Shown here piece by piece: positions 13,165 through 43,526 of a stretch of 64,000 nt of DNA (within the stretch, counting starts at the first letter, position 1; each line of letters starts with the position of its first letter). Both the position numbers and the translations under genes were made by a program. The DNA comes from Proteles cristata cristata (Eukaryota > Chordata > Mammalia > Carnivora > Hyaenidae). The stretch lies in assembly GCA_017311185.1 (NCBI GenBank), contig JAESUZ010000771.1, forward strand, positions 70,001 to 134,000, given 5' to 3'. The notes below the pieces were generated by a model. That model was not told the origin of the DNA. It saw nothing but the letters and a program-made list of their open reading frames with translations, and did no database searches.

Positions 13165-13396
13165 ATTTAAAAAACACTGTATTTTGGAATAATTTTAGAC
13201 TTACAGAAAAGTTGCAAATATAGTACAGAGAGTTCCTGTGCACCTTTCACCCTGCTTCCCCCATGTTAAGACTTTATATAACCATGAACTTCATCACTAC
13301 TGTTAAACTCTTTTGCATTTTACTACTTTTTCCACTGATGTTTTGTTGTTGTTCCAGAATCCCGTACGGGATTCCACACTGCATTTAGAAATACTG
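13165..13396 (-). mobile_element. Second ancient L1M-type 3' fragment, minus strand
   Basis: AATAATTTTAGACTTACAGA, then AAGTTGCAAATATAGTACAG, TTCACCCTGCTTCCCCC and a TTTTTCCACTGATGTTTTG block follow the order of another L1M-type antisense 3' end. It adjoins the previous element directly. Its right end carries an 18-bp perfect palindrome at 13357-13374. Confidence 0.7.
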
Positions 13397-13400
13397 ATTT

Positions 13401-13506
13401 CTGGGACACCTGGGTGGCTCAGTTGGTTAAGCATCTGACTTCAGCTCAGGTCATGATCTCACTGCTCATGAGTTTGAGCCACATGTTAGGCTCTGTGCTG
13501 AGAGCC
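13401..13506 (+). mobile_element. 5' half of a SINE split by a double retrocopy
   Basis: The head GGACACCTGGGTGGCTCAG and the B-box region run normally to GCTCTGTGCTGAGAGCC, where the SINE stops abruptly at a 17-nt T tract. The matching 3' half resumes 2.0 kb later at 15507 (GGATTCTGTGCC). The SINE's own TSD confirms that the two halves are one element: AGAAATACTGATTT at 13387-13400 against AGAAATAAGGATTT at 15618-15631. Confidence 0.93.
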
Positions 13507-14346
13507 TTTTTTTTTTTTTTTTTGCCACTCAAATTTGTATTTATTTGAGGATCCAGGTGTGGCCCAGATCTCACAGGCAGCAGCACAGAGACACCCACTT
13601 CTAGTTTACTTGGAAGTGGGTCTCCTCTTGACTGTCCTAGGGCTTCCCCTCTCCCAGCCCTGGAGACAAGACTGAGGTCAGGAAAGCTACATGGGTGCAC
13701 AGAGAAGAAGACCCCGCTCTCTTTACTTGGGCCATGTGGGTGCTGACCAGCCCTGGAGAGCAGACTACCCTATCCCCCAGTTAAAACAGGACCTCTGGCA
13801 ACAAGGGGACCACACGGAGGGCCTGAGCTTCAGGGCCAGATCTCCAGGCTCTGTGTAGAGGCTCAGGAATGGAATGTAGAACTCTGAGAGAACAATCTAG
13901 AATTCTAAGAACAGAATGTAGCATCCCAGGAATGTAATCGGAAATTCTAGCAACACCTCTGAAGCTGATTGAGAATGTTGAGAGTGTTACTGAGTATTCT
14001 ACAGGCAGGCTCGACTTCCGGGACCTGACTTTACAAATCAGAGATGGGGGGCGGATATCTGGTAGTCAGGGCAGACTCTCTGGTTTTGGAGCCTGAGTCC
14101 CTGCGGACAGAGCCTGAACCTCTGAGAGTGAAGCCAGGGACTCTGAGGGCAGTTTGAGGTGCTCAGAGGGTGGGGTCCTACCTTCGGAAGGCTGAGTCAG
14201 GTCCTCCGGGAGCTGCTTCCCTGCCTCAAGGGGCGGGACCAATACATCAGGGGAGGGGTCACGGACTGCAGAGCTGCGTGACTGCGGAGGCAAGCGGAGT
14301 CCCCGGCCTTGTAGAAGCCTGCGAAGGTCTCTGAGGGTGTGGATTG
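13507..14346 (-). pseudogene. Processed retrocopy (3' part) of an unidentified mRNA, minus strand
   Basis: Read on the minus strand this is the end of a spliced transcript. An open frame of about 90 codons runs from the junction near 14345 to a TGA at 14066-14068. It is rich in Pro, Ser, Leu and Glu, with repeated SE-type units (EGRTPPSEHLKLPSESLASL). A 3' UTR of about 540 nt follows, with AATAAA at 13540-13545 and a 17-nt poly(A) at 13507-13523. I do not recognise the gene. Higher GC than its surroundings supports a host-gene origin. The upstream coding sequence is absent, so it is a truncated pseudogene. Its 5' end abuts the IQCB1 copy head to head. Confidence 0.8.
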
Positions 14347-15506
14347 GGTGTGCGGGGTGAATACAGCCGCCTAAAGCTACGTAGGCAGAACGAAGAAGAG
14401 GATCGCAGATTACAGTTGCTTCTTCAAAGACAGAGAGCCATGAGACTATCCCGAGAATTACGGCTGAGTATGCTCGAAATAGTTCATCCAGGTCAGGTGG
14501 AGAAATATAATTGGGAAATAGAAGAGAAATCAGCATTGATTACCCAGAAACATTGGAGAGGGTACAGCGAAAGGAAAAATTTTCGCCAACAGAGGCCATC
14601 TCTCACGGAGTATAAAGCAGCTGTCATACTTCAGAGAGCAACTCTTAAATTTCTAGCAAAGTGTCATAAGAAAAAGAAACCATTTGCTTCTTGGCAAGGA
14701 CTCCAAGATCTCACTGATGTACGCAGAGTTCAACTGAAGCAACAAGTGGATGACTATCTTCGAAGACATCCGAGCTCTCAGATGTCAGATGTGACTAGCA
14801 AAGAGCTCCATTCCCAAGCTCAAGAACAACTGCAACATTACCTTACGGGCAGAACCCTAGAAGAGAGAGCCCAGCAGCACAGGAAGGCTCTGATGGCTCA
14901 GATCAGCACCAACATTGAACAGTTGATGAAGGCACCAAGTCTGAAGGAAGCAGAAGAGAAGGAACCTGAGCTCTTCCTAAGTAGATCCAGGCCTGTGGCA
15001 GCCAAGGCCAAGTAGGCCCATCTCACCACTCTGAAACATACACAAGCACCCTGGTGGAAGAAGCTTGGGGAAGAAGCTGGAGAGGAGACTGATGTCCCAA
15101 AGGATGAGCTTAGTGTAGAACTAGGAACTTTACTCATTGGTGGAACCAAACCCCCTTAGGGAGCTACCCAAAGAAATCACACTTATTTCAGGAGATTATA
15201 TTGGTTCTGCCTCTGGCAAGCCAGTAGACCAGAGCTATCCTAACTCATGGTTTTCCAGATTCTTCTCCAGGTAAGATTTTCAGGCAGTAAGAAAAGAGTT
15301 ACCTTCTACCTCTATCTCAGTTCTCTTTTTCCTTTTCCACATCAACATACCAGGCCACACACAAATTAGTAGGGCTTTTATTGTGGAACTAACCTCATCC
15401 TGACATTCTGTTGGCTTAGATGAAATGTGGTAGTTCTTTTGTTTTTGCTGTTCTCCTACTAGAGATGTTTTCTAAATAAATATTTTCAACAATTCTAAAA
15501 AAAAAA
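14347..15506 (+). pseudogene. IQCB1: IQCB1 (NPHP5) processed retrocopy, 3' part, with premature stop
   Basis: The intronless frame at 14344-15015 (223 codons) resembles the C-terminal part of IQCB1/nephrocystin-5, a ciliary calmodulin-binding protein of about 600 residues. An Arg/Gln/Glu-rich helical stretch (residues 7-50) is followed by IQ-type segments at about 63-80 (LITQKHWRGYSERKNF) and 92-110 (AAVILQRATLKFLAKC). CAG has become TAG at 15013-15015. Reading on in frame gives about 47 more codons of family-like sequence to the natural-looking TAG at 15157-15159, so the last part is cut off. The 3' UTR has AATAAA at 15475-15480 and a 10-nt A tract at 15497-15506. No introns, promoter or 5' half. 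The gene assignment is from recall. Confidence 0.8.
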
Positions 15507-15617
15507 TGGATTCTGTGCCTCCCTCTTTCTTAGCTCCTCCCCCTTAGCCTTCCCCCACTTGTGTTCTGTGTGTGTCTCTCTGTCTCAAAATAATTAAGCA
15601 TTAAAATTTTTTAAAAA
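15507..15617 (+). mobile_element. 3' half of the split SINE
   Basis: This resumes the element interrupted at 13506: GGATTCTGTGCCTCCCTC, then a CT-rich run, CTGTCTCAAAATAATTAAGC and an A-rich tail. About 13 consensus bases between the halves are missing. The second TSD copy follows at 15618-15631 with two mismatches to the first. Confidence 0.92.
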
Positions 15618-15631
15618 AGAAATAAGGATTT

Positions 15632-43026: not shown

Positions 43027-43253
43027 TAAAAACTTTTTTTTTAATATTTTTATTTATTTCTAGGAGAGAGAGAGAGAGACAGCGTGAGCAGGGGAGGGTC
43101 AGAGAGAGAGGGAATCACAGACACTGAAACAGGCTCCAGGCTCTGAGCTGGCAGTCAGCACAGAGCCCGACGCGGGGCTCGAACCCACGAACCGTGAGAT
43201 CATGACCCAAGCGAAAGTCGGACGCTTAACCGACTAAGCCACCCAGGCGCCCC
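43027..43253 (-). mobile_element. Young SINE, minus strand, 21-bp TSD
   Basis: Close to consensus: head GGGGCGCCTGGGTGGCTTAG at 43253, tail ATAAAAATATTAAAAAAAAA. The flanking TAGACTTATATGAGATATTT plus one T is perfect at 43006-43026 and 43254-43274, which is long for this family. Confidence 0.98.
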
Positions 43254-43289
43254 TAGACTTATATGAGATATTTTAAATAGTCAAACTTA

Positions 43290-43526
43290 GAGGCACCTGG
43301 GTGGCTCAGTTGATTAAGCGTCTGACTTCAACTTAGGTCATGATCTCAGGGATTGCGAGTTTGAGCCCTGTGTCAGGCTCTGTGCTGACAGCTGAGAGCC
43401 TACAGCCTGCTTCAGCTTCTGTGTCTCCCTCTTCTCTCTGCCCATCCTCAACTTGCAGAGAGAGAGAGAGAGACAGTGTGTGTGTGTGTGTGTGTGTCTC
43501 AAAAATAAACACTAAAAATTTTTTAA
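43290..43526 (+). mobile_element. SINE with a (GT)n expansion in its tail region, plus strand
   Basis: GAGGCACCTGGGTGGCTCAG head, good A and B boxes. The CT-rich part has become AGAGAGAGAGAGAGACAGTG and a run of about 11 GT (43476-43497). TSD AAATAGTCAAACTTA (43275-43289) against AAATAGTCAAATTC (43527-43540). Confidence 0.95.

What the first reader, a model, noticed from the sequence alone, without database searches (positions are those of the whole stretch)
13387..15631. Two unrelated mRNA copies, head to head, at one site inside one SINE
A SINE whose own TSD lies at 13387-13400 and 15618-15631 is split by 2.0 kb. That insert starts with a 17-nt T tract and ends with a 10-nt A tract. Each half is a processed mRNA 3' end with its own AATAAA 16 nt from its poly(A), pointing outwards: an unknown gene on minus, IQCB1 on plus. 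No target duplication surrounds the insert, and about 13 SINE bases are missing. The site GAGCC/TGGAT is not an L1 endonuclease TTTT/AA site. The simplest single-event reading is that both 3' ends of a double-strand break primed reverse transcription on the poly(A) tails of two different mRNAs, and the cDNAs were then joined. This is like twin priming, but on two templates. Two separate insertions at the same point is the less economical alternative.
Basis: partly seen in the sequence, partly recalled or inferred. Interest (0 to 1): 0.85.

Follow-up and report, generated by a model that had tools for sequence, protein, structure and literature searches.

The report
Two mRNAs copied into one break
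In this mammalian genome, tail ends of two unrelated gene messages (DNAAF3 and IQCB1) sit nose to nose at one point inside an older repeat, most simply because one DNA break was patched by copying two different RNAs from its two sides, an arrangement proposed in 2010 but left unproven.

Summary
One SINE (its own 14-nt flanking duplication matches 12 of 14) is interrupted at 13507-15506. Left part: T17 plus the reversed 3' end of DNAAF3 mRNA (849 nt, 5.0% diverged). Right part: the 3' part of spliced IQCB1 mRNA (five exon blocks, four introns removed, 3.4% diverged) ending in A10. The parents lie on different contigs; the search showed no further copy. Both copies are 5'-truncated inside an exon and meet at 14371/14372, sharing only 'CT'. 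Neither half, nor the whole, has a target duplication; about 12-13 SINE bases are missing; neither end resembles an L1 endonuclease site. Ages are not separable (overall p = 0.08; non-CpG p = 0.28), but the test is weak: divergence is uneven within the DNAAF3 half itself. Template switching on one strand cannot give opposite orientations with both poly(A) tails outward. Best reading: the two 3' ends of one break each primed reverse transcription on the poly(A) tail of a different mRNA, and the cDNAs were joined. Meyer et al. 2010 postulated this as 'dual priming' but could not tell it from twin priming, all their templates being L1. Two insertions plus a deletion is not excluded: no related genome was available. 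New variant of a known kind.

The parts
13387..13400 (+). left copy of the SINE's own target duplication
   Evidence: 12/14 match to 15618-15631
13401..13506 (+). left part of the interrupted SINE, ending GAGAGCC
13507..13523 (-). [quoted passage not shown] no A run at this point in the parent gene
13524..14372 (-). 5'-truncated retrocopy of part of the DNAAF3 terminal exon (3' coding end and 3' UTR); 42 mismatches in 846 aligned bases
13540..13545 (-). AATAAA of the DNAAF3 copy, 16 nt from the poly(A)
14371..14372 (.). junction of the two 5' ends: CT shared by both parents at the breakpoint
14371..15496 (+). 5'-truncated retrocopy of spliced IQCB1 mRNA (exon blocks 14371-14491, 14492-14640, 14641-14772, 14773-14929, 14930-15496); 38 mismatches in 1125 aligned bases
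15475..15480 (+). AATAAA of the IQCB1 copy, 16 nt from the poly(A)
15497..15506 (+). A10, poly(A) tail of the IQCB1 copy
15507..15617 (+). right part of the same SINE, starting TGGATTCTG
15618..15631 (+). right copy of the SINE's own target duplication

Best explanation
One germline event. A double-strand break (or two offset nicks) opened the SINE. A reverse transcriptase, most likely that of L1, extended each of the two 3' DNA ends on the poly(A) tail of a different mRNA: DNAAF3 from the left end, IQCB1 from the right end. Both cDNAs stopped short of the mRNA 5' ends and were joined 5' end to 5' end at a 2-nt match, with loss of about 12 target bases. Shown: two mRNA-derived copies, opposite orientation, both poly(A) tails outward, direct junction, no duplication. 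Inferred: that it was one event, that L1 protein did it, and that no canonical endonuclease cut started it.
For: Parents on separate contigs, and no further copy among the 7 matches found. IQCB1 introns removed. Poly(A) placed where the DNAAF3 genome sequence has none. Junction with no SINE or other bases and 2-nt overlap. No target duplication for either half or the whole. One SINE, not two. Overall and non-CpG divergence not separable. Orientation rules out template switching along one strand. Dual priming was described in advance as a possible mechanism, with internal microhomology expected (PMC2837659 section 11).
Against: No orthologous empty or half-filled site could be examined. Coding-part divergence differs between the halves (26/338 against 24/786, p = 0.001), although it also differs inside the DNAAF3 half; overall p = 0.08. 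A 2-nt match arises by chance in about one joint in six (my estimate). Neither break end carries Ts that could pair with poly(A), which priming on a tail would favour. A scan that picks out oddities favours rare coincidences.
Confidence: 0.67

Rival explanations
1. Two independent retrocopy insertions within about 13 bp of each other in the same SINE, in opposite orientations, followed by a deletion that removed both 5' ends and the inner target duplications (or a second insertion exactly at the 5' boundary of the first, without duplication).
For: Needs only ordinary events; about 12-13 SINE bases are missing; the ages are only loosely constrained and the coding parts differ in divergence.
Against: Needs three events, or one of exact position without target duplication. 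No half shows a duplication. Neither outer end looks like an L1 endonuclease site, whereas 69.6% of 23 human processed pseudogene insertions have one (PMC12016303, passage). Neither gene shows another retrocopy among the 7 matches found.
Confidence: 0.17
2. Ready-made cDNAs of the two mRNAs were captured at a break by end joining, without priming on the break ends.
For: Capture of spliced-mRNA sequences, and of several fragments with 1-5 nt matches at one break, is reported in mouse zygotes (PMC4516963, passages). No duplication here.
Against: Those captured mRNAs had no poly(A) tails, while here both tails are kept and both face outward; random capture gives that arrangement in about one case in four (my estimate).
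Confidence: 0.13
3. Ordinary twin priming on a single mRNA, or a template switch on one strand.
For: Twin priming makes composite insertions with inner microhomology (PMC3996531, passages).
Against: The two segments are different genes on different contigs, each with its own poly(A) signal and tail. A template switch would put both in the same orientation.
Confidence: 0.02

Closest known systems
Dual priming (postulated by Meyer et al. 2010, PMC2837659; abstract and sections 8, 9, 11 read)
   Same: Two mRNAs, one on each side of the break, each primed at its poly(A) tail; opposite orientations, joined inside.
   Different: Their 39 loci were L1 with a bare 5' poly(T), could not be told from twin priming, showed no internal microhomology, and had target duplications and an endonuclease motif at one side. 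Here both templates are identifiable, neither is L1, and there is no duplication or motif.
Twin priming (Ostertag and Kazazian 2001, recalled; passages in PMC12016303, PMC2912911 and PMC3996531)
   Same: Two cDNAs of opposite orientation joined inside the insertion, usually with short microhomology.
   Different: One RNA, with the inverted part primed inside it; here two RNAs, both primed at the tail.
Antisense LINE-1 chimeras (Law and Burns 2026, PMC13174262; abstract, sections 12 and 13, and passages read)
   Same: A second RNA in opposite orientation, explained there by priming at the other end of the break; [quoted passage not shown]
   Different: One partner is L1 by definition, and their examples carry target duplications; here two ordinary mRNAs and no duplication.
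Endonuclease-independent L1 retrotransposition (passages in PMC4516963 and PMC2912911)
   Same: No target duplication. Atypical site and target loss are recalled features.
   Different: Those insertions are often truncated at the 3' end as well (passage); here both poly(A) tails are intact and two templates are used.
Reverse-transcript-mediated break repair in mouse zygotes (Ono et al. 2015, PMC4516963; abstract and passages seen)
   Same: Spliced mRNA copies at a break; multiple fragments mostly joined with 1-5 nt matches.
   Different: No poly(A) tails on the captured genes.

Membership tests
L1-mediated processed pseudogene | introns removed | tested here: met
   IQCB1: 4 of 4 introns in the covered stretch absent. 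The DNAAF3 piece lies inside one exon, so it cannot show this.
L1-mediated processed pseudogene | poly(A) tail not encoded in the parent | tested here: met
   T17 and A10; parent DNA continues TAAGAGG (DNAAF3) and CAAAAACTTG (IQCB1; the short A run there makes IQCB1 less clean)
L1-mediated processed pseudogene | target site duplication | tested here: not met
   none of 5 nt or more within 3 nt of the ends, whole or halves
L1-mediated processed pseudogene | TTTT/AA-like endonuclease site | tested here: not met
   ends AGCC/ (top) and TCCA/ (bottom), read; TCCG/ if the T is a mutated C as in other copies
Dual priming (Meyer et al. 2010) | two different RNA molecules in opposite orientation | tested here: met
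   DNAAF3 and IQCB1
Dual priming (Meyer et al. 2010) | both primed at poly(A), tails outward | tested here: met
   T17 left, A10 right, each 16 nt from AATAAA; priming itself is inferred from the position of the tails
Dual priming (Meyer et al. 2010) | single insertion event | tested here: inconclusive
   direct junction; overall divergence not separable but coding parts differ; no relative genome available
Dual priming (Meyer et al. 2010) | L1 endonuclease nick and target duplication, as at their 39 loci | tested here: not met
Twin priming | both segments from the same RNA | tested here: not met
   different contigs
Endonuclease-independent retrotransposition | no duplication, atypical site | tested here: met
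Endonuclease-independent retrotransposition | dependence on a pre-existing break and on L1 reverse transcriptase | not testable with these tools
   needs a cell assay

The most novel reading that the evidence does not exclude
A mammalian germline break was bridged by two reverse transcriptase reactions running at once, one from each end on two different ordinary mRNAs, and closed by joining the two cDNAs. It would be a locus in which dual priming is told apart from twin priming by the identity of the templates, and I found no earlier one in the searches named. Both templates are genes of cilium biology (recalled), so both may have been abundant in one germ cell type.
Probability: 0.57. Interest if true: 0.72.

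Novelty: new variant of a known kind. Interest (0 to 1): 0.57.

Why it matters
Meyer et al. 2010 could not separate dual from twin priming because their templates were L1, and wrote that they hoped future studies would validate dual priming. Two different mRNAs remove that ambiguity, so the question becomes testable by counting retrocopy pairs in any genome. It bears on whether both ends of one break can be extended on separate RNAs, and on how L1 activity patches breaks.

Tried and rejected
Template switching on one strand: rejected by orientation. A single parent transcript: rejected, two contigs. Two different SINEs brought together by a deletion: judged unlikely, because the outer duplication fits one SINE and the SINE positions on both sides nearly meet. 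A snoRNA-like Rfam hit at 13488-13556 was below its gathering score (26.2 against 45, E 0.15) and was ignored. Pfam on seven frames: only the IQ motif of the IQCB1 frame passed its cut-off; four weaker hits did not. PDB: one weak myosin match (E 0.25) and none. A first alignment script used the wrong strand for the IQCB1 loci (that part is useless) and was replaced. Age could not be made absolute: no relative and no outgroup.

Literature searches for a two-mRNA case: 1 paper; 76 papers, 20 listed; 1 paper: 'dual priming' with 'retrotransposition'; 7 papers; 22 papers, 15 listed. None of the passages I read described two ordinary mRNAs head to head. For most listed papers I saw only the title and the start of the abstract, and subscription journals are largely absent. 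Term searches inside PMC9237045, PMC8082928 and PMC7058536 showed no such case in the passages returned. Zumalave et al. (concurrent L1 events and reciprocal translocations in tumours) was seen only as a reference entry.

Full report
What is there. The window holds a SINE at about 13401-15617 with its own flanking duplication, 13387-13400 and 15618-15631, matching 12 of 14. Random pairs of window positions reach 12 of 14 in 0 of 20,000 at fixed register, 4 of 20,000 with 2 nt of play, 12 of 20,000 with 4 nt, and 21 of 20,000 when both are AT-rich with 2 nt of play; with 15 nt of play 3 of 300 do. So the two SINE parts very probably belong to one element. At 13507-15506 the SINE is interrupted by T17, two gene-derived segments and A10.

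The parents. A search of the window's own assembly (2.39 Gb, 5412 contigs) with the 2-kb insert gave seven matches: the insert itself, one block of 852 query bases at 94% on contig C2559, and five blocks at 96-98% on contig C3090. The C3090 blocks are exons: four introns with GT and AG ends are missing from the insert (exon by exon alignments). The parent protein has 34 matches, several of them named IQCB1 or IQ calmodulin-binding motif-containing protein 1. The C2559 block is part of a terminal exon. Its frame matches Pfam DUF4471 weakly (E 0.00086, 19.1 bits, below the cut-off of 25), two upstream frames match it clearly (E 8e-17 and 8e-27), and a troponin gene lies beside it. The terminal exon frame has 21 matches, two of them named DNAAF3 or dynein assembly factor 3. 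That human DNAAF3 neighbours TNNI3 is recalled. The genome search scores only its best candidates, so absence of further copies is not proof.

Why both are mRNA copies. IQCB1 is spliced. The DNAAF3 piece lies in one exon, so splicing cannot be shown, but the T17 stands where the parent continues with DNA that is not A-rich (TAAGAGG), 16 nt from its AATAAA, as for a polyadenylated transcript.

The junction. DNAAF3 similarity runs to T14372 and IQCB1 similarity begins at C14371, sharing CT. The parents differ on both sides of it (DNAAF3 continues GAGCTAGC; IQCB1 is preceded by GATGTTA). No SINE base or filler lies between. Both pieces are truncated inside an exon.

The outer ends. No direct repeat of 5 nt or more lies within 3 nt of the ends of the composite or of either half. 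Other SINE copies have a segment like TGGAGCCTGCTTC between GAGCC and the GATTCTG stretch. By my reading 13 of the 18 hits aligned keep it; the other five are three divergent forms, one with a different shortening, and one that is not a SINE. None of the 18, and none of the 46 other hits (many of which are chance or partial), has the joint seen here, so about 12-13 bases were probably lost with the insertion. A further 7 nt is missing just to the left, and the alignment there has more than one solution. The intended genome-wide count of this SINE form got no answer from the tool. Neither break end resembles TTTT/AA.

Age. DNAAF3 half: 42 of 846 mismatches; IQCB1 half: 38 of 1125 (Fisher p = 0.08). 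Excluding CpG: 28/791 against 29/1089 (p = 0.28). 3' UTR only: 16/508 against 14/339 (p = 0.45); non-CpG UTR 10/490 against 13/337 (p = 0.13), where DNAAF3 is the lower. Against equal age, the coding parts differ: 26/338 against 24/786 (p = 0.001), non-CpG 18/301 against 16/752 (p = 0.003). But the DNAAF3 coding part also differs from the DNAAF3 UTR within the same half (26/338 against 16/508, p = 0.004), so divergence from the parent is uneven for reasons other than insertion age; faster change of the DNAAF3 parent tail is my inference. The age test neither refutes nor strongly supports one event, and no outgroup was available.

Mechanism. Two segments in opposite orientation with both poly(A) tails outward cannot come from one reverse transcriptase jumping between templates, which would keep one direction. 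They are what results if each 3' end of a broken target primes on a different tail and the cDNAs are then joined. Meyer et al. 2010 described this as dual priming, as a speculation, and could not separate it from twin priming; they expected internal microhomology under it but saw none at their own loci. Twin priming proper uses one RNA. Law and Burns 2026 attribute antisense L1 chimeras to priming from the opposite end of the break; 15 of their 17 mRNA or lncRNA chimeras are sense, and the antisense ones they call more consistent with twin priming. So the general idea is in print; two ordinary mRNAs head to head I did not find (searches, open-access library only). Lack of duplication and of an endonuclease site points to a pre-existing break or atypical nicks. 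In 23 human processed pseudogene insertions 69.6% had duplications, 4.3% target deletions and 69.6% an endonuclease site (PMC12016303, passage), so this locus is of a minority type either way.

Rivals. Two independent insertions in one SINE within about 13 bp plus a deletion remain possible. My rough estimate, assuming 10,000 retrocopies placed at random in 2.4 Gb, is about 0.1 head-to-head pair that close per genome before the extra deletion, and a scan that picks oddities raises that prior. Capture of ready-made cDNAs is possible, but the published mouse cases lacked poly(A) tails, and random capture would orient both tails outward in about one case of four. Hence 0.67 for one event primed at both ends.

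Function. Nothing seen suggests that the locus does anything: the IQCB1 copy has a premature stop and both pieces lack their 5' ends. Expression could not be tested. Its value is as a record of mechanism.

Noticed in passing
window 13501-13506 and other SINE copies: The interrupted SINE also lacks 7 nt (CAGCTCA) just left of the insertion point; this may be a second loss at the break or an older deletion.
   Followed up: partly
window 14371-15159: The IQCB1 retrocopy keeps the parent frame over its coding part with one premature stop (TAG at 15013-15015).
   Followed up: no
window 13524-14372: Within the DNAAF3 retrocopy the coding part is more diverged from the parent than the UTR part (26/338 against 16/508, p = 0.004), which may mean fast change of the DNAAF3 C-terminal tail in the parent.
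   Followed up: partly
L008 4351-4581 and 7315-8355: The DNAAF3 parent gene has a GC-rich 37-nt minisatellite just beyond its poly(A) site and a longer one (about 29 copies) of the same period upstream.
   Followed up: no
window 43233-43310: Two SINE heads in opposite orientation start only about 50 nt apart.
   Followed up: no
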